Assembly: GCA_027063545.1 (NCBI GenBank)
Contig: JAMORN010000281.1
Span: 1 to 18,143, forward strand
DNA length: 18,143 nucleotides
Source of the DNA: JAMORN01 sp027063545 [NCBI: bacterium]
GTDB taxonomy: Bacteria; JAMORN01
Direction of reading: 5' to 3'
The position numbers and the translations under genes were made by a program. Below are positions 1 to 9,069 of the stretch, piece by piece (the stretch's first letter is position 1; every line of letters starts with the position of its first letter). The notes beneath the pieces are model-generated. The model did not search any database and was not told the origin of the DNA. It saw only the letters and a program-made list of their open reading frames with translations.

Positions 1-870
1 TATAGACATCAAAAGTTTATTTTTTTCAAAAAAGTTTTTATCCTTTTGAAGTAGTTCTATAATCTTATATAGAATTGTTTTTAGACTTTCTATTTTATCT
101 TTATTTAGTAATGGTGTTATTATTTCCAAATCTTCAGATAATCCCTCAAAATTTTTTAAGATAGAATCCATTTCTGATAGATATATAAATTCCTCAATTC
201 TATATAACTTATCAGGTAAAGAATTTTTTACTTCAACTCTTTTGTTTTCTTCAGCCTTTAATTTATCAAAATATCCTTCTTTTTTGAGTTTTTTCCATTC
301 TTTTATGAGTTCATCTATTTCACTTTGTTTTAAAAGTATATATCCATAGGTGTCTATTACTTCTTTATATTTTATATCTTCCAATGAGTCTTCAATTTTA
401 TCTAAAGTATCTGTGGATTTATCCTCTTCTGTTTCAATCCCATGCTCTTTTTTATAAAAATCTAAGTCAGCTTTAATTTCATATAGAGAAAATAGAAGAT
501 CTTTATAATTTACTTCTCCTATATCAAGAATTACCTCTTCACCAGATATTTCCATGTTTTCTAATCCAGAAAGTAAATGCTGACCCATTTCTTTAAGTAT
601 TTCTATAGCAGATAGTAAAAAAAATTTTATACTTTTAAAATCAGGGTATTCTATAATGGTTTCCACAGAATATTTTATTGCTTCTAAGAATTCATTAAAC
701 TCTTTTATTTCAAGCTGTGTTCCTTTATCATATATATCTGAAATAATTTGATAAACTATATCCCATTTTTCATCATCTATAATTCTTTGTAGTTTATCAA
801 AATTATCCATTATTAAATCAATAGTTTGTGTTACTATTTCTATTTTTTCCTTTTTTATTTTTATTTTCAT
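1..870 (-). CDS. Putative degenerate CheA-like protein, partial (C-terminus beyond left edge)
   Basis: The reading frame is open from ATG at 870 to the left edge (290 residues, no stop), with AAAGGGC upstream as ribosome site, 14 bases after the previous gene. It is almost all helical. Residues about 20-100 look like the helical HPt (P1) domain of CheA, but there is no histidine in the phosphorylation-site region (around residues 46-51). Residues about 168-190 (VIDTYGYILLKQSEIDELI) match the first helix of the CheA P3 dimerisation domain, where families read roughly LxxLVGELVIxRSRL. Residues about 244-280 (starting LSEDLEIITPLL) resemble the second P3 helix and its exit toward the kinase domain. 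No CheY-binding P2 domain is apparent. An ATPase (P4) and CheW-like (P5) region would be expected to the left. This is an inference from patterns; a generic coiled-coil protein is the alternative. The gene itself is certain. Confidence 0.45.
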   Translation of the reverse strand, partial: MKIKIKKEKIEIVTQTIDLIMDNFDKLQRIIDDEKWDIVYQIISDIYDKGTQLEIKEFNEFLEAIKYSVETIIEYPDFKSIKFFLLSAIEILKEMGQHLLSGLENMEISGEEVILDIGEVNYKDLLFSLYEIKADLDFYKKEHGIETEEDKSTDTLDKIEDSLEDIKYKEVIDTYGYILLKQSEIDELIKEWKKLKKEGYFDKLKAEENKRVEVKNSLPDKLYRIEEFIYLSEMDSILKNFEGLSEDLEIITPLLNKDKIESLKTILYKIIELLQKDKNFFEKNKLLMSI

Positions 871-884
871 ATTTTTGCCCTTTT

Positions 885-1709
885 TTATATTATTAATAAG
901 GTTTTGTTTTTATAATTAATTTTTTCTTGTTTTATTATTATATTTTTGTAATAATTATAAAATAATAATAAATTTTTATTATTCAAATCTTTTTCCAGAA
1001 AAATATTAAAACCTTTTTCTTTAATCTTTGAAATAAAAATTAGGGTATCTTTTTCTAATTTATAATTTAAATTTAAATAAGCTTTTAAATTTAATTTTTC
1101 TTTTTTAAAAAATGTATTAATGTTAATTTCTGTTATAAGAAAACAGCTCTTATCATTACATATGTATATATCAAAAGATATATTATCAATAGTTAATTTC
1201 TTTTTAGTTTTTATTACATTATTAGCTGGTATAGAATAAACTTTTTTTATCTTATTAATTTTAAAAACAACATTATTTTTAAAAGAGATTAAAAGCAACT
1301 CTTTTTTATTATTTAAAACAGCATCAATAAATCCTTTTTCTATAATTAAAGCAGTATTTTCCCTTTCTATTATCAAATATGTTTCTTTATATCTATTGAT
1401 ATTTGCCACTTTTATTTTCTTTTTTCTATATTTTGGAAATTTTTGAGATATATTTTGTGTATTAACTAGTTCTTTTTCATCTATACTTATACTTTTAGAT
1501 ATTTTGTTTGATATATTGTTAATTTGTCCAATATATCCAATTGTAGAATTATAATATATAAATATAACATTTCCTTTACTATCAGGATTAATAATTGGAA
1601 TTATTTTATTATCATAAACAAATAAGGCATTATTTAAAGAGGTTAATATAGATTCATTTTTTATATCTTTAATTCTTAATATATCTACAAGATTAAATTT
1701 TATTTTCAT
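885..1709 (-). CDS. Putative CheW-like scaffold protein with two diverged modules
   Basis: A 274-residue, beta-rich, Lys/Asn/Ile-heavy protein with no signal peptide or membrane segment. Residues about 8-76 follow the CheW layout: V-x-I-L-R-I near 8-13, then ALFVYDNKIIPIINPDSKG (28-46), where CheW has GvvnlRGqvlPVidL. Next come a VIFIYYNSTIGYIGQI strand pair (48-63) like CheW's rliVv-gllVD, and a closing strand that ends at SISI. A second, weaker round may begin near residue 108 (YLIIERENTALIIEKGFIDAV). CheW couples receptors to CheA; here the usual Arg-Gly of the RG motif is replaced by Asp-Asn. The ribosome site AGAGGT lies inside the end of the upstream gene, 4 bases away, so the two are probably translationally coupled. 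The family call rests on pattern and on neighbours; it could be another beta-barrel protein. Confidence 0.42.
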   Translation of the reverse strand: MKIKFNLVDILRIKDIKNESILTSLNNALFVYDNKIIPIINPDSKGNVIFIYYNSTIGYIGQINNISNKISKSISIDEKELVNTQNISQKFPKYRKKKIKVANINRYKETYLIIERENTALIIEKGFIDAVLNNKKELLLISFKNNVVFKINKIKKVYSIPANNVIKTKKKLTIDNISFDIYICNDKSCFLITEININTFFKKEKLNLKAYLNLNYKLEKDTLIFISKIKEKGFNIFLEKDLNNKNLLLFYNYYKNIIIKQEKINYKNKTLLII

Positions 1710-1713
1710 AACT

Positions 1714-2733
1714 TTATACCTCTAATAATCTTTCTTCAATGTAGTTTATAATACCATTTTTTAGAGGCAGAAATAGATTTATATTTGCATCTACAATATG
1801 AATTTGTGATATTATTTCTCTTAAATTCACATCAATTATAGACATTTCATTATTTAATGTATCTATATAGTTAGAGATTAATGTGGTTATATTTTTTACT
1901 TGATATAATATTCCTAAAATTCCTTTTTGCTGTTTTTTATTTTGAGATATAATATATGAAAGTACAATGGTTATATTACTTAATTTTATAGTTTCATGTT
2001 GTAGGATATCAATCTCATATTTAATTGTAGATATATAATTTGATAATGTATTTATTTTTAATTTTAAATTAGAGAATTCAGAGGATAAATCTTTAATTTT
2101 ATTTAATTCTTTGGATAATTCTTTTAAATATTCTTTAACTTTTTCTTTTAATTCTTCAAATATTTTTGCCATATTTTTTTCTTTTAGTTCATCTTTTGAT
2201 GTTTTAGTATTGTTGTAAAATATTTCTATTTCTTTGATAATTATATTTATATCAGAAATCATAAATTCTAATTTATCATTAGGTTCTATTTTAAATTTTA
2301 GATTTTCTTTTAGTTTTTGTTTAATATTATCAATCTTTTTGATAGAGTTGTTTAATTTTTCTATAGAATCTAATATTTCCTTTTCAAATATTAATATAGC
2401 CTCAATATTTTCGGCATCTTCTACAGATAGATTTAAATTAAGTTTTAGGACATCTATAGATTCTTCAAACTCGGTTTTTGATAAATCGGAAAAGTAAAAA
2501 TCATTTATTTCATCTAAGCTTTGAGATAGATTGTAAAGAATCATAGAACTATTTAAGTAAAATAGATTTAAAGATTCTAAAGAATTTTTTAAAGAGTTTA
2601 ATACAGAAATAGGAGAGTAGTTTTTATTATCTTTTTCTTGCGAAAATGGAACTATATTATCTGTTTCTACAATTTCAATTTTTATATTTTCTACTTCTTT
2701 TATTTTTTCTTGATTATTTATTTTTTTTGCCAT
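1714..2733 (-). CDS. Putative soluble chemoreceptor-like coiled-coil protein
   Basis: A 339-residue protein that is almost entirely helical with heptad-like spacing of Leu/Ile, charged, and without any transmembrane segment, so probably cytoplasmic. An unstructured start (about 1-40) is followed by long helices. Residues about 240-290 can be laid over the receptor hairpin tip of methyl-accepting proteins: ILQHETIKLSNITIVLS (243-259) for the ...QTNLLALNAAIEA helix, a polar turn SQNKKQQKG (263-271), and ILYQVKNITTLIS (275-287) for the returning ...DEVRKLAERS helix. The conserved Glu and Arg residues that bind CheW and CheA in true receptors are lost. AAGGAG 7 bases before the ATG (CTCC at 2741-2744 on the plus strand) fixes the start. 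The next gene, a CheW-like candidate, starts 4 bases after its stop. A coiled-coil protein unrelated to receptors remains possible. Confidence 0.4.
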   Translation of the reverse strand: MAKKINNQEKIKEVENIKIEIVETDNIVPFSQEKDNKNYSPISVLNSLKNSLESLNLFYLNSSMILYNLSQSLDEINDFYFSDLSKTEFEESIDVLKLNLNLSVEDAENIEAILIFEKEILDSIEKLNNSIKKIDNIKQKLKENLKFKIEPNDKLEFMISDINIIIKEIEIFYNNTKTSKDELKEKNMAKIFEELKEKVKEYLKELSKELNKIKDLSSEFSNLKLKINTLSNYISTIKYEIDILQHETIKLSNITIVLSYIISQNKKQQKGILGILYQVKNITTLISNYIDTLNNEMSIIDVNLREIISQIHIVDANINLFLPLKNGIINYIEERLLEV

Positions 2734-2748
2734 TTTTTATCTCCTTTT

Positions 2749-3906
2749 TTATTCTATTATATAGTCAGATTTTTTAATTTTTATATTTTTTTTATCACTT
2801 CCTATAAAAATCTTGGCTTCTACGTCTAGGCTATTTTTAAAATATATGTCTAATATTATGTTTTCTTTATTTTCTTTATGAATTGTAGTTTTCAATAAAG
2901 AATATATTTCTTGGCTTATATCTATTATAGCAAATTCTATATCTATTTTTTCGTCATTTACTTTTTCTATTTTTAGAGTTATCCTATTTTTTGTTAACTT
3001 ATTTCTAGGATATTCTAGAATTTTTCTATTATTTAAAAATAACACAAAATTGAAATAATACAAATTGTTTTTTATAAAATCTTCAAATAGAGAATATTTA
3101 GGTTTTCTTAATGTTTTTAGAATAATATTGTAATTCTCAATAGTTGAAGGGATAAAGCCTATAAGAGAAAAAATATTTTTCTTATTAAAATCACGAATCT
3201 CATTGAAAGTTTCTAGAATAATTTCAGTTATATTTATAGAAATGAAATCAAGATTATCTGATGTCGGTATGGCTATTATTTTAGATGTTTTTTTATCAAA
3301 AAGACTATTTTCATGTAAAGAGATAAAATTATGAAATAGATATTTAAATAAAATTTTTTTAATTCTATCTTTAGATGTTAGATTTTTTTCTATTTTTTTT
3401 ACAATCAACTTTTCTATTTTATCAATTATATTGATATTTTTTAGTTCTTTATTAGTGTATAAATAGATTGTTTTTCCTATACCATCGTAAATATCAATTT
3501 TATCTATCTTTAGTTTTGATTTAGCAATGAATTCGATAAAGTCATAAAGATTAAAAATATATATATTTTTAAGAAAATTTAACTCTTTTAATATTTTTAA
3601 TAAATTAGAAATAGCATTTAAAGGTATAGGTTTTAATCCTATATAAATAATATCTTTTTCATTTTTAATATAATTTTCTTTTATATTAAGAAAAATAGAT
3701 CTAACAATACTTAATCCATCAATGGTTATATTTCTTTTTGTTATTTTTTCTTTTAGAAGAAGATAATTTATGTCTATTTCATTTTTTTCTAAGAATTCTA
3801 AAAAGAATCTTTCTTTACTATTAAAGATACTATGTATGTCTATTATTTCAAATTTATCCTTTTTACAAAGATAAATATTATTGAAATAAAACCATATATA
3901 TATCAT
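2749..3906 (-). CDS. Putative degenerate Hsp70/actin-fold protein
   Basis: A 385-residue protein whose segment order follows a reduced Hsp70. MIYIWFYFNNIYLCKKDKF at the start occupies the place of the phosphate-1 hairpin. Residues about 64-118 follow the pattern helix (VRSIFLNIKENY), strand (DIIYIG), helix, strand, as in ISxxxLxxLKxxAE...AVITVPAxF...AGL. IDIYDGIGKTIYLYT (137-151) sits where Hsp70 has VFDLGGGTFDVS. ISINITEII (223-231) and SLIGFIPST (247-255) sit where lobe II and GGSSRIP lie. SLDVEAKIFIGSDKKNIKI (359-377) resembles the substrate-binding beta strand pair GxLxVxAxDxxTGKxxxI. The glycine-rich nucleotide loops are mostly lost, so ATP hydrolysis is doubtful. It is far shorter than DnaK (about 640 residues). 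The ATG follows GGAAG that overlaps the parA stop. The assignment is structural guesswork supported by order, not by motifs. Confidence 0.4.
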   Translation of the reverse strand: MIYIWFYFNNIYLCKKDKFEIIDIHSIFNSKERFFLEFLEKNEIDINYLLLKEKITKRNITIDGLSIVRSIFLNIKENYIKNEKDIIYIGLKPIPLNAISNLLKILKELNFLKNIYIFNLYDFIEFIAKSKLKIDKIDIYDGIGKTIYLYTNKELKNINIIDKIEKLIVKKIEKNLTSKDRIKKILFKYLFHNFISLHENSLFDKKTSKIIAIPTSDNLDFISINITEIILETFNEIRDFNKKNIFSLIGFIPSTIENYNIILKTLRKPKYSLFEDFIKNNLYYFNFVLFLNNRKILEYPRNKLTKNRITLKIEKVNDEKIDIEFAIIDISQEIYSLLKTTIHKENKENIILDIYFKNSLDVEAKIFIGSDKKNIKIKKSDYIIE

Positions 3907-3915
3907 CTCAACTTC

Positions 3916-4692
3916 CTATTTTTTATGTTTTATTAATATCGCTAACACAACTCTTGTATAATCAAAATTTCCCAAAGAGTTTTTTTTATATTCATCTATT
4001 AATTTCCCAAAATTTGGGGCTTCAGCTAATGCTACATTATTTCTTATTGGAGGAAGTATTTTATCTTCACCAAAACTCTTTTTTAATTTTTCAAGGAAAA
4101 ATTTTCCTATATTTGTTCTATGATTAAAAAATGTCGGAAGAATACCTAAAATTTCTATATCAGGATTATACTCTGTTTTTATTTCATATATAAAATCAAC
4201 AACTTCTTCTACACCATTTATTGATAGAAAATTTGTTAGTGTTGGAATAATAACCTCTTTTGAAGCAACTAAAGAAAGAGTTGTTAAGAATTCTAAAGAT
4301 GGGGGAGTATCTATAAAAATAAAATCAAAATTATCTATAAAATAGGAATATATAAGTTGTTTTAAAGCATAGGGATTGAAAGAGTTTGGGGTTAAATTCT
4401 TTTCATATTCTTCTAAAAATTTACCCCCACCTGTTATATACAGATATTCATTTTTTTTGAAAATTATACTATCAGAATATTTATTAATATCAGTTAATGA
4501 TTTAACAAATAAAGGAGATACATTATTTTTTGTTATTCCCAAGTGAAGTAAGGCATGTCCCTGAGGATCCATATCTATTATTAGAGTTTTATATTTCTTT
4601 TTAGAAATGAGTCCAGCAATATTTACACATGATGTAGTTTTACCACAGCCACCCTTTTTATTTGTTAAAGCAATTATCCTAATTTTTTTCAT
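3916..4692 (-). CDS. ParA/Soj-family P-loop ATPase
   Basis: A 258-residue deviant Walker ATPase of the ParA/MinD superfamily. Visible motifs are NKKGGCGKTTS at 11-21 (signature Lys13 and P-loop Lys18), LIIDMDPQG at 37-45 (switch I/A'), FDFIFIDTPPS at 122-132 (Walker B, Asp128) and, near the C-terminus, IRNNVALAEAPNFGKLIDEY (216-235), which is typical of Soj-type proteins. Such proteins dimerise on ATP, bind DNA nonspecifically and position plasmids, chromosomes or protein clusters. There is no N-terminal helix-turn-helix and no parB follows, so a chromosome-partition role is not indicated. The gene is first in a five-gene leftward operon with chemosensory-like partners, which fits a cluster-positioning role such as known for Vibrio ParC or Rhodobacter PpfA. 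AAAGGA precedes the ATG. The family is firm; the cargo is inferred. Confidence 0.9.
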   Translation of the reverse strand: MKKIRIIALTNKKGGCGKTTSCVNIAGLISKKKYKTLIIDMDPQGHALLHLGITKNNVSPLFVKSLTDINKYSDSIIFKKNEYLYITGGGKFLEEYEKNLTPNSFNPYALKQLIYSYFIDNFDFIFIDTPPSLEFLTTLSLVASKEVIIPTLTNFLSINGVEEVVDFIYEIKTEYNPDIEILGILPTFFNHRTNIGKFFLEKLKKSFGEDKILPPIRNNVALAEAPNFGKLIDEYKKNSLGNFDYTRVVLAILIKHKK

Positions 4693-4759
4693 ACTTTATC
4701 CTTTGTTTTTAATTTTCTTTTCTGCAATTTATATGCCAGATTTATATAATAGATTTTAC

Positions 4760-4790
4760 TGAACAAATTTTTTATTTTATTATATATAAT
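4760..4790 (+). promoter_or_regulatory. Possible promoter of the tRNA-Arg gene
   Basis: A perfect TATAAT lies at 4785-4790, about 21 bases before the mature tRNA 5' end, which is a suitable distance for a short leader. The best -35 candidate is TGAACA at 4760-4765 with an over-long 19-base spacer. The whole 4693-4811 interval is so A+T rich that TATAAT-like strings are expected by chance. The interval is also the divergent leader of the parA operon on the other strand; I could not pick a promoter for that. Confidence 0.3.
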
Positions 4791-4811
4791 TTTATAAAAT
4801 TTTTCTACTAA

Positions 4812-4885
4812 GGCCCCATAGCTCAGGTGGATAGAGCGACGCCCTCCTAAGGCGTAGGTCGCAGGTTCAAATCCTGCTGGGGCTA
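4812..4885 (+). tRNA. tRNA-Arg (anticodon CCT)
   Basis: A full cloverleaf folds by eye. The acceptor stem is GGCCCCA with TGGGGCT (first pair G-U), the D stem GCTC/GAGC, and the anticodon stem ACGCC/GGCGT around loop CTCCTAA, giving anticodon CCT (reads AGG). The variable loop is AGGTC, and the T stem GCAGG/CCTGC encloses loop TTCAAAT. The discriminator is A4885 and CCA is not encoded. Eight T residues follow directly (4886-4893), so the tRNA body plus T-run may itself end transcription. The last 19 bases overlap, antisense, the end of the neighbouring membrane-protein gene. Confidence 0.97.
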
Positions 4886-5817
4886 TTTTTTTTATATAAA
4901 TGAGGATTTTCAAGAAAATATAGTATTTCTAAAGAAAATATAAGAGTCATTGAAACGTAATATATCCAGGATAATATGATTATAATAGAAGAGAGCGATC
5001 CATATACTAAGTTTAGATTTGTTATTTTTGTTATATATATAGCGTAAAGAAATTTAGCTATAGACCATAAAGTAAAGAATATTGTAGCAGCAATAAGTTG
5101 GTTTATTATTTTTACTTTTATATTTAAAAAGAATTTTATAGTAAGAATATAAAATATGAGAAAAATAGAAAATGATATATAATTTATATTAGAAAGAGTA
5201 GATATAATAAAATTAGATAATGGTAAAGTTTTTTTTAAAAATATAAATAGTTTATTTATATAAACAGATGAGTATATAAGGTTAGTAAATGTAAGATGTA
5301 AAATTTCAAATATGAAATTAGAGATAAAAATAACAAGTATTATTGAAATAACAAAAAGTGAGCTTAATAGTTGAACTTTAATTAAATGTCTATTAGGGAG
5401 ATTAAATACTTTTCTATAAATTGTTTGAAGCATATTAAATATTACTCCACTAATAAACGGAAGAAAAAGTAGATTAATTAAAGTAAAGGATGTTGAAAGA
5501 GTATGGTTTATTAAATTTTTTTCTATCCACTCTTTAGTTAAAAAAGGGACAACTTCAGATAAGTTATTTATGATTAAATTAATTGTATTAGATGAACTAT
5601 GTAAAAAAAGTTTAAATAGTATATTTAATACTATTATACTAAAAGTAGTAAATGGAATTATAGAAAGTAGAAAGTAATAAGATATTGATGCAGAATAAGA
5701 AAAACCGCTATCATTTATAAATTTTAAAATAGAGTTATAAATAAGTAGGAAAGTGTTTGATAAGAAATTATACAATTTTCTTTTTATAAGAATTAATATT
5801 TTTATTTTTTTATTCAT
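4867..5817 (-). CDS. YihY/BrkB-family inner-membrane protein
   Basis: A 316-residue polytopic membrane protein of the YihY/virulence factor BrkB family, once misnamed ribonuclease BN; its function is not established. After a short basic segment it shows the family hallmark near the first membrane helix, DSGFSYSASISYYFLLSIIPF (about 36-56), followed by about five more hydrophobic segments and a polar tail. I start it at ATG 5817, which has AAGG a few bases upstream. A TTG 60 bases farther up (5877) would add 20 residues but lacks a ribosome site. The length is normal for the family. The stop codon (4867-4869) lies inside the tRNA gene, so the last residues (SPSRI) are encoded by the antisense of the tRNA T-arm and acceptor stem. 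It is divergent from rfbA, across an 83-base AT-rich gap (5818-5900) in which I see no convincing promoter. Confidence 0.85.
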   Translation of the reverse strand: MNKKIKILILIKRKLYNFLSNTFLLIYNSILKFINDSGFSYSASISYYFLLSIIPFTTFSIIVLNILFKLFLHSSSNTINLIINNLSEVVPFLTKEWIEKNLINHTLSTSFTLINLLFLPFISGVIFNMLQTIYRKVFNLPNRHLIKVQLLSSLFVISIILVIFISNFIFEILHLTFTNLIYSSVYINKLFIFLKKTLPLSNFIISTLSNINYISFSIFLIFYILTIKFFLNIKVKIINQLIAATIFFTLWSIAKFLYAIYITKITNLNLVYGSLSSIIIILSWIYYVSMTLIFSLEILYFLENPHLYKKNSPSRI

Positions 5818-5900
5818 AAACCTTAACTTTAATAATAAAATTATTGTTAATTTCCAAAATAAAATAATATTTTTCAATAAAAAATAACAAGAAAGATAAT

Positions 5901-6782
5901 ATGAAAGGAATAGTTTTAGCAGGTGGAAGTGGTACTAGACTTTATCCTATAACATTAACAACAAGTAAACAGCTTTTACCTCTTTATGATAAACCTATGA
6001 TATATTATCCTCTTTCAATTTTATTTGAGGCAGATATTAGGGAAATAGTTATTATTTCAACTCCTAAACATATAGATTTATATAAAGAGCTTTTAGGTAC
6101 AGGGGAAGACTTTGGGGTTAAGTTTTATTATGTAATACAACAGGAACCAAGAGGTATAGCTGAAGCTTTTTTGATTAGTGAAGATTATATAAAAGAAGAA
6201 AATGTAGCTCTTATTTTAGGAGATAATGTTTTTTATGGAGATATAATCTATGATATAATAGAAAAAGGGAAAAAAATAAAAGAAGGAGCGTTAATTTCTG
6301 CATATTATGTAAAGGATCCGCAAAGATATGGAATTGTAGAATTTGATAAAGAAGGAAAACCTTCAAAAATTGTAGAGAAACCAAAGAACCCAAAAAGTAA
6401 TTATGCAGTAATGGGACTTTATTTTTATGATAAAAATGTTATTTACTATGCTAAAGAACTTAAACCTTCTCAAAGAGGAGAACTTGAGATAACAGATTTA
6501 AATAATATATATTTAGAAGAAGGAAAATTAAATGTAATAAAAATAGATAAAGGTTTAGCTTGGCTTGATACAGGAACACCTTCTTCTCTTCTTGAAGCAG
6601 CTAATTTTATAGAGACAATACAAAATAGACAAGGTTTAATGATTGCAGCTTTAGAAGAAATAGCATATTTAAAAGGTTTTATTACGTTAGAGAAGTTAAA
6701 GGAAAGAGCAAAGTATTTTGAAAATAGTGAATATGGAAAATATCTATTAAGAAGAATAAAGGAGTTTGAAAATGAAATATAA
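5901..6782 (+). CDS. rfbA: Glucose-1-phosphate thymidylyltransferase
   Basis: A 293-residue RmlA/RfbA enzyme, cytosolic. It makes dTDP-glucose from dTTP and glucose 1-phosphate, the first step toward dTDP-rhamnose and other deoxysugars for surface polysaccharide. The nucleotide-binding loop LAGGSGTRLYPIT (6-18), SKQLLPLYDKPMIYYPL (22-38), EPRGIAEAF, the metal-binding LGDN and WLDTGTPSSLLEA are all present, and the C-terminal RQGLMIAALEEIAY stretch is typical of the short RmlA type. The length matches the family. EPRGIAEAF replaces the commoner PxGLAQAF, a minor variant. No rfbB, rfbC or rfbD lies beside it, so the rest of the pathway must be elsewhere. Its stop codon lies 8 bases into the following export gene, so the two are co-transcribed and probably co-translated, tying the nucleotide sugar to export. 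Confidence 0.95.
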   Translation: MKGIVLAGGSGTRLYPITLTTSKQLLPLYDKPMIYYPLSILFEADIREIVIISTPKHIDLYKELLGTGEDFGVKFYYVIQQEPRGIAEAFLISEDYIKEENVALILGDNVFYGDIIYDIIEKGKKIKEGALISAYYVKDPQRYGIVEFDKEGKPSKIVEKPKNPKSNYAVMGLYFYDKNVIYYAKELKPSQRGELEITDLNNIYLEEGKLNVIKIDKGLAWLDTGTPSSLLEAANFIETIQNRQGLMIAALEEIAYLKGFITLEKLKERAKYFENSEYGKYLLRRIKEFENEI

Positions 6783-9069
6783 ACTTTTTATTTATGGTTT
6801 ATTATATATAATTTTTATAAATACACAAATTTTTTCACAAGTTTTTAATTCAAATATTGATTTTTCAGTTTCTCAAAATAAGAATACTAATTTGGTAAAA
6901 AAATTAGATTCCTTAAAAACTATTAAAAATATAACTGGAAACGAACAAGTTTCTTCTTTTAAATATTCTTCTCCTTCTATAATTACACAAATAGATACAT
7001 CCTATTATGATAGTCTGATTATGCAGTCTTTATTGAGTAGGTTTTTATATAGAAATTCTTTAATGAAGAAAATAAAGATTTTTGGAGAGCAGTTCTTTCT
7101 TTTTAATAGGGATGGATTTATTCCAAGTATAATAGGTCCTGTTCCTGAGGATTATGTTTTTGGGCCGGGTGATGAATTTTCTATATATTTATGGGGAGAA
7201 GTTCAAAAGGTATATAATGTGAAAGTGCAAAAAGATGGATCTATTTTTTTACCATATATAGGAAAAATTGTTGTTTCAGGATTAACTTATGATAAATTAA
7301 AAAAGAAATTAACATATAGACTAACAAAAGTATTTTCTACGTTAAATTATGGTAAAAGTTCTGCAACAACATTTTTAGATATTATAATGACTAAATATAG
7401 ATCTATAAAAATTTTTGTTGTAGGAGAGGCTTTAAATCCAGGAGCTTATACTTTATCTGGTTTTACAAATATTTATTCCGCAATATACTTTACAGGAGGT
7501 CCTTCTAAAACAGGAAGTTACAGAGAAATTTTAATAAAAAGGAATAAAAAAATAGTTGAAAAGATTGATCTTTATGATTTCCTGATTTATGGGAACATAA
7601 AATCAGATTTTAGGTTAAAAGATGGTGATATTATAGTTTTTACCCCTCGAAAAAAGTTAGTAAAAATTAAAGGAGCTGTTTTAAGAGAGTTTACTTATGA
7701 ATTGAAAGAAAATGAAACTTTAGGAGATTTAATAAAATTAGCCGGAGGTTTAAAATCTACAGCTAATATAGAAAATGTGAGAATTACAAGAATAATAACA
7801 GATTCTAATTTTTATAAAGAGAATAAAAAGGAAATATTTTTAAGTTTTAAAAATAGAGAAGAGTTATATGATAGTGATTTTCTTTTATATGATAATGATG
7901 AAATATATATTCCCGAGATTTATATAAAACCAAAAAATAGAGTTATAGTAAAAGGGCAGGGTATTAAATATCCGGGTACTTATGCAATAGATGATAGTAT
8001 TAAAACATTAAAAGATATCCTCAAAGTATCTGGTGCAAAGAAAGATATTATTGATAAAATTATAATTTTAAGAAGAATAAGAGAGGGAAAATATAAAGCT
8101 ATTTTATTAAATATAGAAGAAGGTAATAATTTTCAACTAAAAAATGAAGATATAATATATACATTTCTTCAACGAGAGTTCTTTATTTATCCAAAAATTA
8201 AAATAATGGGAGCCGTTAATCGTCCAGGAATGTATAATTATTATAAGGATTTAACAGTGTCAAAATTACTTGTTTTAGCTAGAGGTTTCAGATATGATGC
8301 TGATACCACCTATGTTGAGGTAAATAGAATAGATAGAAACTCAGATAGATTATATGTTAATATAGCAAGGTTAAAGTATGATAGAAATTTAAATTTATTG
8401 GAAGGTAAAGAGTTAAAATTATTACCAGGAGATGTTGTAATTGTTAGAGTAAATCCTAATCTAGTTACACCTAAATTAGTTAAGATATATGGAGAAGTAA
8501 GATACCCAGGAGAATATTTACTAACAAATAATACAGAACGGATAAGCGATTTAATAGAAAGAGCAGGAGGTGTTAAATCTTCAGGTTATTTAAAGGCTGG
8601 AGTTTTATGGAGAGATTCTATAAAAGTTAATATAGATTTGGAAAATGCATACAAAAATCCTAAATCACCGGATAATATAATATTAAAAGAGGGAGATTCT
8701 ATTTATATACCAAAACTTGAATATACAGTAAAAGTAGAAGGCGAAGTTCAATTCCCATCTTTAATTGTATGGAGAAGAGGAAAAGGAATTGACTATTATA
8801 TATCCCAAGCAGGAGGATTTACAGAAAATGCTGATCCAGATAGGGTTGTTGGTTATCAGCCTAATGGAAAGAGGATAATTCAAAGAACATGCTGGTTTGA
8901 TGATAGAGTAGAACCAGGAGCATATATATATGTTCCTAAAAGAAAAAATCAAAGATTTGATTGGTCCTATACACTTTCTATTATAAAGGATATTGTTGGA
9001 ATAGTTTCTTCTGCTGTTACTACAGCTTATTTAATATATACAATACAAAATAATGATGATAATAAGTAA
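6772..9069 (+). CDS. Wza-like polysaccharide export protein with SLBB repeats
   Basis: A 765-residue exported protein. The start is ATG 6772, set by AAAGGAG at 6758-6764 with a 7-base spacer; this gives an 11-base overlap with rfbA. A signal peptide (hydrophobic about 4-20, cleavage near IFS-Q) is followed by a Ser/Asn/Lys-rich linker and a Poly_export domain that begins PVPEDYVFGPGDEFSIYLWG (about 122-141). Six SLBB-type units follow, starting near residues 214 (VVGEALNPGAYTL), 297, 391, 476 (MGAVNRPGMY), 569 (YGEVRYPGEYLL) and 651 (VEGEVQFPS). A hydrophobic segment near 732-758 closes the protein. Wza-family proteins form the outer-membrane exit pore for capsule or exopolysaccharide. This one has more SLBB units than Wza itself and resembles the long forms of deltaproteobacteria and FCB bacteria. 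There is no lipobox Cys at the signal cleavage. No Wzc-type kinase gene is adjacent. Confidence 0.92.
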   Translation: MKYKLFIYGLLYIIFINTQIFSQVFNSNIDFSVSQNKNTNLVKKLDSLKTIKNITGNEQVSSFKYSSPSIITQIDTSYYDSLIMQSLLSRFLYRNSLMKKIKIFGEQFFLFNRDGFIPSIIGPVPEDYVFGPGDEFSIYLWGEVQKVYNVKVQKDGSIFLPYIGKIVVSGLTYDKLKKKLTYRLTKVFSTLNYGKSSATTFLDIIMTKYRSIKIFVVGEALNPGAYTLSGFTNIYSAIYFTGGPSKTGSYREILIKRNKKIVEKIDLYDFLIYGNIKSDFRLKDGDIIVFTPRKKLVKIKGAVLREFTYELKENETLGDLIKLAGGLKSTANIENVRITRIITDSNFYKENKKEIFLSFKNREELYDSDFLLYDNDEIYIPEIYIKPKNRVIVKGQGIKYPGTYAIDDSIKTLKDILKVSGAKKDIIDKIIILRRIREGKYKAILLNIEEGNNFQLKNEDIIYTFLQREFFIYPKIKIMGAVNRPGMYNYYKDLTVSKLLVLARGFRYDADTTYVEVNRIDRNSDRLYVNIARLKYDRNLNLLEGKELKLLPGDVVIVRVNPNLVTPKLVKIYGEVRYPGEYLLTNNTERISDLIERAGGVKSSGYLKAGVLWRDSIKVNIDLENAYKNPKSPDNIILKEGDSIYIPKLEYTVKVEGEVQFPSLIVWRRGKGIDYYISQAGGFTENADPDRVVGYQPNGKRIIQRTCWFDDRVEPGAYIYVPKRKNQRFDWSYTLSIIKDIVGIVSSAVTTAYLIYTIQNNDDNK

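What the first reader, a model, noticed from the sequence alone, without database searches (positions are those of the whole stretch)
1..4692. Five-gene operon that looks like a diverged chemosensory array with its own ParA and an Hsp70-like partner
Seen: five leftward genes with gaps of 9, 15, 4 and 14 bases: ParA, then four proteins with no strong signature. Inference from residue patterns: they resemble, in order, reduced Hsp70, a soluble receptor hairpin, tandem CheW modules, and CheA P1 plus P3. Each single match is weak, but three separate matches to parts of one complex in one operon reinforce each other. Known: ParA-type proteins position chemoreceptor clusters (Vibrio ParC, Rhodobacter PpfA), and DnaK homologues (SglK/Stk) affect Myxococcus social motility, which also uses chemosensory pathways. 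A structural array that has lost phosphotransfer, or one with a changed output, would be new to my knowledge.
Basis: partly seen in the sequence, partly recalled or inferred. Interest (0 to 1): 0.85.

Follow-up and report, generated by a model that had tools for sequence, protein, structure and literature searches.

The report
ParA-led operon, possibly chemosensory array
A five-gene operon in a deep-branching uncultured bacterium starts with a positioning ATPase and has an order of genes that fits a sensory-array operon seen here in other bacteria, but four of its proteins are so changed that no sequence search recognises them.

Summary
The operon is real: five leftward genes, gaps 9, 15, 4 and 14 bases. 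Only ParA is recognised by sequence. orfB-E pass no curated family cut-off, and profile tests against CheW, MCP tip, CheA and Hsp70 are near shuffle level. Two other lines favour its idea. Second, a single-sequence AlphaFold model of orfB, weak overall, gives an actin/Hsp70-type N-terminal subdomain (Z 7.4-8.2); and in a 51-row ParA tree the window ParA is sister to those array ParAs (97/78), though rival placements are not rejected. orfC is a soluble heptad coiled coil (z 5.9). orfD as CheW and orfE as CheA are unproven. Best reading: a highly diverged, ParA-positioned cytoplasmic chemosensory-type array, about 0.45; a ParA/actin-fold system with another cargo remains a serious rival.

The parts
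3916..4692 (-). ParA-type ATPase (258 aa), no parB beside it in the sequenced part; NKKGGCGKTT Walker A
   Evidence: Pfam AAA_31 1.2e-39; the genome's Soj-ParB pair, read by eye, is at C305; trees
2749..3906 (-). orfB, 385 aa, actin/Hsp70-superfamily-like N-terminal subdomain; no phosphate-1 loop seen by eye; strand-rich C-terminal stretch in the model
   Evidence: AlphaFold single sequence, mean pLDDT 49.9, block means 52-80 over residues 1-110; VIA-align Z 7.4-8.2 to actins, Arp2/3, MreB and a RAC-complex chain; Foldseek no E<=0.001; no Pfam hit at E<=1
1714..2733 (-). orfC, 339 aa soluble coiled coil, possible degenerate receptor hairpin
   Evidence: heptad periodicity z 5.9, no membrane helix; MCP-tip profile not significant
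885..1709 (-). orfD, 274 aa, basic; possible pair of diverged CheW-like modules
   Evidence: position only; CheW profile 5 of 100, 357 of 600 and 116 of 1000 shuffles as good; AlphaFold uninformative, pLDDT 33
1..870 (-). orfE, first 290 aa of an acidic helical protein, cut by the contig end
   Evidence: helical periodicity z 4.6; no family; 3' end missing
4779..4807 (-). promoter-like site before parA, consensus match only
   Evidence: 10 of 12 letters; 4 sites found in the region, 2.2 expected in shuffles
4812..4885 (+). tRNA-Arg (CCT), right-hand boundary of the operon
   Evidence: ARAGORN

Best explanation
The operon most likely encodes a fast-evolved, cytoplasmic chemosensory-type array that is positioned by its own ParA. 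Inferred mechanism: ParA-ATP binds the nucleoid and moves or spaces a cytoplasmic cluster built from a coiled-coil receptor (orfC) and CheW-like couplers (orfD); the actin/Hsp70-fold protein (orfB) is an accessory or adaptor between ParA and the cluster and has probably lost ordinary ATP cycling, as no phosphate-1 loop can be seen. Output would pass through orfE or through one of the CheA kinases found elsewhere in the genome (C157, C265). Shown: the operon, ParA, a heptad coiled coil in orfC, and a conserved ParA-Hsp70-MCP-CheW operon in another phylum. Moderately supported: the actin-type subdomain of orfB. Inferred: identity of orfC, orfD and orfE, the array, the positioning and the output.
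For: All 8 operons read (G248, G376, G110, G396, G403, G407, G405, G408, out of 12 of 50 genomes of that phylum with the triple-CheW gene) start ParA - Hsp70 (498-502 aa) - soluble MCP (646-751 aa) - CheW x3 (501-509 aa in 7; broken by a stop in G405) (alignments of 7 CheW3 and 8 Hsp70). Pfam on one member (L070): HSP70 9.6e-120, MCPsignal 2e-61 with CZB, CheW 4.6e-102. The window order ParA - actin/Hsp70-type - coiled coil - orfD is collinear with it. orfB fold. orfC heptads. ParA tree: window sister to 7 array ParAs, 97/78, inside a 9-row starred set 96/91. Among the 65 rows printed, NKKGG occurs in the window and in 10 rows that are all array ParAs (three of these repeat or belong to the same operons), not in the other 54. 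The genome has chemosensory genes: CheW 4 matches, all over the cut-off, MCP 11 at E<=1, of which 4 on three contigs over the cut-off.
Against: No sequence test links orfB-E to Hsp70, MCP, CheW or CheA. Models of the triple CheW (E<=1e-45) and of this Hsp70 (E<=1e-130) found nothing in the window's genome, although those limits are strict. The window ParA is a very long branch; in the first tree it joined two other long rows, L039 and L045 (80/23), and AU tests do not reject its placement with pilM-linked (p 0.292) or other pilus-linked ParAs (p 0.211). The closest ParAs by E-value were a Soj (G138) and then a pilM-linked one (G347), ahead of the array ParAs. The collinear operon was seen only in one phylum. 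Foldseek on orfB gave no E<=0.001 and unrelated folds among its top rows. With the CheW profile cleaned of own-genome rows orfD ranks 22 of 70.
Confidence: 0.45

Rival explanations
1. A ParA-plus-actin-fold cargo-positioning or cytoskeletal system unrelated to chemosensing: ParA positions some other cytoplasmic assembly made of coiled-coil and strand-rich proteins.
For: Only ParA and, moderately, the actin-type subdomain of orfB have positive evidence; orfC-E match nothing.
Against: The order fits a real ParA-Hsp70-MCP-CheW operon and the window ParA groups with its ParAs.
Confidence: 0.32
2. A diverged ParA-pilM type IV pilus assembly operon, with orfB as PilM.
For: ParA stands directly before PilM/PilN, PilO and a secretin in L072 (Pfam) and before similar genes in L074 (PilM/PilN by Pfam) and L073 (by eye). 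These ParAs share KGGCGKTT with the window and are its nearest rows by path. PilM is actin-like (recalled).
Against: orfC, orfD and the held part of orfE have no membrane helix, while PilN and PilO are membrane-anchored and the secretin is an outer-membrane protein (recalled). orfC is a soluble coiled coil. No pilus family hit.
Confidence: 0.12
3. Variant of the best reading: orfE is not CheA-like but the N-terminal part of a soluble receptor whose signalling end, followed by cheA and a CheB-like gene, lies on contig C265; the operon would then be a nearly whole chemosensory operon. (Not exclusive of the best explanation.)
For: C265 begins with a 5'-open MCP-like frame of 246 aa (PF00015 1.9e-5, 25.0 bits, cut-off 34.6), then CheA (771 aa) and a receiver domain read by eye as the start of CheB, in a compatible orientation. 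GC 0.236 for orfE and 0.229 for that frame. In one of four widths orfE scored z 1.95 (25 of 500 shuffles) against the MCP tip.
Against: No overlap between the two contig ends. C157 starts inside a CheA whose N-terminus is missing and is as open a candidate. Other contig ends were not examined. orfE in the other three widths: 137, 193 and 442 of 500.
Confidence: 0.15

Closest known systems
ParA-Hsp70-soluble MCP-triple CheW chemosensory operon of Deferribacterota (found here; G403 equals Denitrovibrio acetiphilus by its 3,222,077-base contig, against Table 3 of PMC3035293, passages)
   Same: Order of the first four genes as far as the window's can be identified; leading ParA without ParB; soluble third protein
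   Different: There the proteins are recognised by Pfam (one member of each tested) and Hsp70 keeps its ATP motifs. Window orfB, orfC and orfD are 0.77, 0.45-0.52 and 0.54-0.55 of the length and unrecognisable. There CheB, STAS, CheY, HEAT, CheR, CheY and CheA follow (seen together in L089); here orfE follows
ParA-positioned chemoreceptor clusters (Vibrio ParC/ParP, Rhodobacter PpfA/TlpT)
   Same: Orphan ParA with array genes (recalled; PMC5706961 and PMC6829392 seen only as abstract starts in the listing)
   Different: No Hsp70 partner there as far as I recall; no localisation data here
Myxococcus FrzCD nucleoid-bound cytoplasmic array
   Same: Soluble receptor; the Deferribacterota MCPs have a basic N-terminal tail (net +7 to +11 in 50 residues, 8 of 8), as described for FrzCD (abstract start of PMC5716589 in listings)
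   Different: orfC has no such tail (net 0 in 50 residues); no ParA or Hsp70 in the Frz operon as far as I recall
Myxococcus StkA, an Hsp70 homologue acting upstream of the Dif chemosensory pathway
   Same: An Hsp70 linked genetically to a chemosensory pathway (PMC4319316, abstract and passages)
   Different: stkA stands with stkB and stkC, not with array genes, in the passages seen; StkA has 540 residues

Membership tests
ParA | Deviant Walker A KGGxGKT and AAA_31 profile | tested here: met
Soj-ParB chromosome partition pair | parB next door | tested here: not met
   no ParB-like gene among the four other genes of the operon; the genome's pair is at C305; what follows orfE is unknown
Hsp70 | HSP70 profile match; DFGTTNS and DLGGGTLD motifs | tested here: not met
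   orfB: no Pfam match at E<=1; own-genome HSP70 search finds only C329; domain profiles 50 to 373 of 400 shuffles as good
Actin/Hsp70 superfamily fold | Actin-type subdomain | tested here: inconclusive
   residues 1-121: Z 7.4-8.2, rmsd 2.1-3.4 A, 81-114 residues aligned; the 50 listed rows are, by title, actin, Arp2/3, MreB, dynactin, RAC and complexes holding actin; the model is weak elsewhere and Foldseek has no E<=0.001
MCP signalling domain | Conserved hairpin tip | tested here: not met
   orfC: 72-151 of 500 shuffles as good, 371 of 600; the own MCPs of C284, C137 and C204, not in the profile, score 62, 60 and 46
CheW | CheW profile match or fold | tested here: inconclusive
   orfD: no Pfam match; 5 of 100, 357 of 600, 116 of 1000 shuffles as good; model pLDDT 33. 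Own CheW left out of the profile still scores z 22.3
CheA | Hpt with histidine, H-kinase_dim, HATPase, CheW-like end | tested here: inconclusive
   orfE: no Pfam match in 290 aa, 304 of 600 shuffles as good; the rest lies beyond the contig end
ParA-Hsp70-MCP-CheW operon of the Deferribacterota type | Four leading genes in this order | tested here: inconclusive
   order compatible, but only ParA and in part the orfB fold are identified
ParA-pilM type IV pilus operon | Membrane-anchored PilN/PilO and a secretin after PilM | tested here: not met
   no membrane helix in orfC, orfD or the held part of orfE; no pilus family

The most novel reading that the evidence does not exclude
An Hsp70/actin-fold protein is a core, co-transcribed partner of ParA in a class of cytoplasmic chemosensory arrays found in at least two far-apart bacterial lineages; in the window lineage the whole module has been rebuilt so far that its Hsp70 lost ATP binding and its receptor, coupler and possibly kinase lost their signature residues, leaving a positioning or scaffolding array with a changed output.
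Probability: 0.37. Interest if true: 0.78.

Novelty: new variant of a known kind. Interest (0 to 1): 0.56.

Why it matters
If an Hsp70 is part of a chemosensory array, as a loader for ParA or a remodeller of the receptor lattice, it gives a concrete test in culturable bacteria (Denitrovibrio) of how cytoplasmic arrays are assembled and positioned. The window would show how far such an array can drift and still keep its gene order. In the rows listed by seven searches of the held PMC library I saw no paper on a chemosensory operon headed by ParA and Hsp70: 20 of 441 papers, 15 of 2,354, 15 of 20, 8 of 19, 2 of 2, 10 of 17, 1 of 1. Titles and abstract starts only, so an unlisted or subscription paper may describe it.

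Tried and rejected
Relatives of the unrecognised genes: orfB in 59 genomes (1 of 59, itself) and in viral contigs (none); orfD in viral contigs (none) and plasmids (none); orfB-E against 78 own-genome ORFs (nothing beyond themselves that I would trust). orfC and orfE were not searched in any outside collection, nor orfD in the genomes. ParA in genome contigs gave 7 loci, 27-37% identity; I read the ORFs of two, L004 and L007, and neither has such an operon.

hhalign of the single window proteins against eight families and pooled CheW domains: best probability 1.1% for orfB-E. My own profile aligner gave no support either. Alignments that look good by eye (orfD residues 10-65 and 140-215 to CheW; the end of orfB to an Hsp70 substrate-binding sheet) failed these tests and are not used as evidence. 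In some searches the own CheW of C157 was in the profile, so its high score there is no control; one search repeats the test without it.

AlphaFold of orfD without an alignment: pLDDT 33, best Z 3.5, no CheW among the 18 rows; uninformative. Foldseek on the orfB model: no E<=0.001; MreB at ranks 3 and 4, Hsp70s at 15 and 30, unrelated folds above and between.

Left end: of 46 matches to window 1-150 in the own genome none but itself starts at base 1; the ends of C265 and C157 do not overlap it.

ParA trees: 65 rows, 56 different. For the second tree I dropped 14 rows: repeats, the long row L007, and L039 and L045 because the window had joined them as long branches. The AU test for window plus own Soj did not finish. 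The ORF listing was cut in the output; one search scanned all of its 29 loci and 30 more by profile.

My ORF filter keeps the longer of two overlapping frames, so CheB in L070 and one CheY each in L071 and L092 do not show; I did not look for them further.
Full report
What is there. The window is one whole contig (C281) of a 1.57 Mb, 355-contig, 83% complete genome; the 59 and 386 'relatives' offered for it are all labelled 'same domain' in the rows shown. The five leftward ORFs and their 9, 15, 4 and 14 base gaps are as described. They are genes: the longest stop-free frame is 388 codons against at most 100 in 200 first-order Markov sequences, GC differs by codon position as in other genes of this genome, and AAGG/GAGG-type sites precede the starts. 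GC of the five genes is 0.16-0.255, against 0.326 for the RnfC-like gene to the right; other genes of the genome are as low (BrkB 0.195, recF 0.154). A tRNA-Arg and a BrkB gene bound the operon on the right; on the left the contig ends inside orfE.

What sequence says. Only ParA is recognised (AAA_31 1.2e-39). It is not the chromosome-partition ParA: by eye, the genome's Soj and ParB stand on C305 near ATP synthase genes. For the other four, Pfam and NCBIfam reached no cut-off, and PDB, PHROGs and PADLOC gave only coiled-coil noise for orfC and chance-level hits. Pfam's CheW, MCPsignal and HSP70 models over the own genome at E<=1 gave 4, 11 and 1 matches, none in this contig. The tests do find real members: the own MCPs of C284, C137 and C204, which are not in the tip profile, score 62, 60 and 46, and a degenerate MCP-like frame of C265 is fourth; the own CheW of C157 and the CheW ends of two CheAs, with those rows left out of the profile, stand first with z 22.3, 8.7 and 8.5.

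What gene order says. The window ParA hit 45 of 386 genomes at E<=1e-36. Of the 29 loci fetched by that search, 3 have an Hsp70 gene beside ParA, all of one family, f111; 30 loci of a second ParA search add no further place. Reading more DNA showed a chemosensory operon. Whole in L089: ParA, Hsp70, soluble MCP, triple CheW, CheB, STAS, CheY, HEAT, CheR, CheY, CheA. Pfam was run on one member of each gene (L070 for ParA, Hsp70, MCP with CZB, CheW, CheY, HEAT, CheR; L069 for CheB; L089 for STAS; L090 for CheA); the other genomes were matched by alignment or by start and length. In that phylum 12 of 50 genomes have the triple-CheW gene at E<=1e-50. I read 8 of these 12 and all 8 begin ParA-Hsp70-MCP-CheW; in G405 the CheW gene is broken by a stop. 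CheA is reached in 5 of the 8 stretches; the other three stretches end before it. The 3,222,077-base contig of G403 equals the genome size of Denitrovibrio acetiphilus (PMC3035293, Table 3 in passages), hence Deferribacterota (phylum name recalled). Across 386 genomes an Hsp70 of this type at E<=1e-130 was found in 3, all f111.

What structure and phylogeny say. A single-sequence AlphaFold model of orfB is poor overall (pLDDT 49.9), with block means of 52-80 over residues 1-110. Aligned to Foldseek's candidates, the 50 listed rows are by title actin, Arp2/3, MreB, dynactin, RAC (Hsp70-type) or complexes holding actin, Z 7.4-8.2 over residues 1-121. The tool warns that Z under 8 may mean a common arrangement, and Foldseek gave no E<=0.001; I call this moderate. 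orfC has heptad periodicity (z 5.9 at 3.5) and orfE helical periodicity (z 4.6 at 3.67); orfB and orfD show neither. None has a membrane helix. In a 51-row ParA tree the window ParA is sister to seven array ParAs (97/78). It is a long branch; in the first tree it joined two other long rows beside that group, and AU tests do not reject pairing it with pilus-linked ParAs (p 0.292, 0.211). NKKGG in front of the Walker lysine occurs, among 65 printed rows, in the window and in 10 rows that are array ParAs.

Rivals. ParA also leads PilM/PilN, PilO and a secretin in L072 and similar genes in L073 and L074. That shares the actin-type second gene but not a soluble coiled coil, and the window's later genes have no membrane helix. 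A ParA/actin-fold system with another cargo remains quite possible. orfE could be the front of the receptor whose end is on C265, or of the kinase whose start is missing on C157; neither contig end overlaps the window, so this is open.

Mechanism. Shown: a ParA in one tight operon with a soluble coiled coil and, moderately, an actin/Hsp70-type protein. Inferred: a ParA gradient on the nucleoid carries or spaces a cytoplasmic cluster, as is known (recalled) for PpfA and ParC. In Deferribacterota the MCP begins with a conserved basic tail (net +7 to +11 in the first 50 residues, 8 of 8), a candidate ParA-contacting or DNA-contacting tail; orfC has none. The Hsp70 there keeps its ATP motifs and lacks the lid, as its match ends at profile position 496 of 599; orfB shows no such motifs by eye, which suggests a structural rather than a chaperone role.

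Verdict. Observation confirmed. Interpretation partly supported, through conserved order and a partial fold, not through the residue patterns on which it was built. The most useful result is the ParA-Hsp70-headed chemosensory operon of Deferribacterota, of which I saw no description in the rows listed by my paper searches.

Noticed in passing
L028:1034-1999 (own genome, contig C305): ATP synthase subunit c with four fused hairpins (PF00137, 4 stretches). By eye all four have Q or G where the ion-binding glutamate is expected (comparison recalled, not aligned here; other copies not searched).
   Followed up: partly
L072:858-5528 (also L073, L074): An orphan ParA directly before PilM/PilN, PilO and a secretin: ParA as first gene of a type IV pilus assembly operon (L072 by Pfam; L074 PilM/PilN by Pfam; L073 by eye).
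   Followed up: partly
L027 (own contig C157): CheA fragment with three CheW-like stretches and a receiver domain, then CheW, then, read by eye, a KaiC/RadA-like ATPase.
   Followed up: no
L026:2824-3564 (own contig C265): Soluble MCP-like frame with a degenerate tip before CheA; PF00015 25.0 bits, below the cut-off of 34.6.
   Followed up: partly
L069-L071, L089-L093: Conserved basic N-terminal tail on the soluble MCPs of the Deferribacterota operon, a possible ParA- or nucleoid-contacting peptide.
   Followed up: partly
L092, near 6446-7534: In G405 the triple-CheW gene is interrupted by a stop codon.
   Followed up: no
4812-4885 and 4867-5877: tRNA-Arg (CCT) on the plus strand overlaps the 3' end of the BrkB-like gene on the minus strand by 19 bases.
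   Followed up: no
1-6000: Strong AT enrichment (GC 0.18-0.27 per kb) against 0.25-0.37 in the rest of the contig.
   Followed up: no
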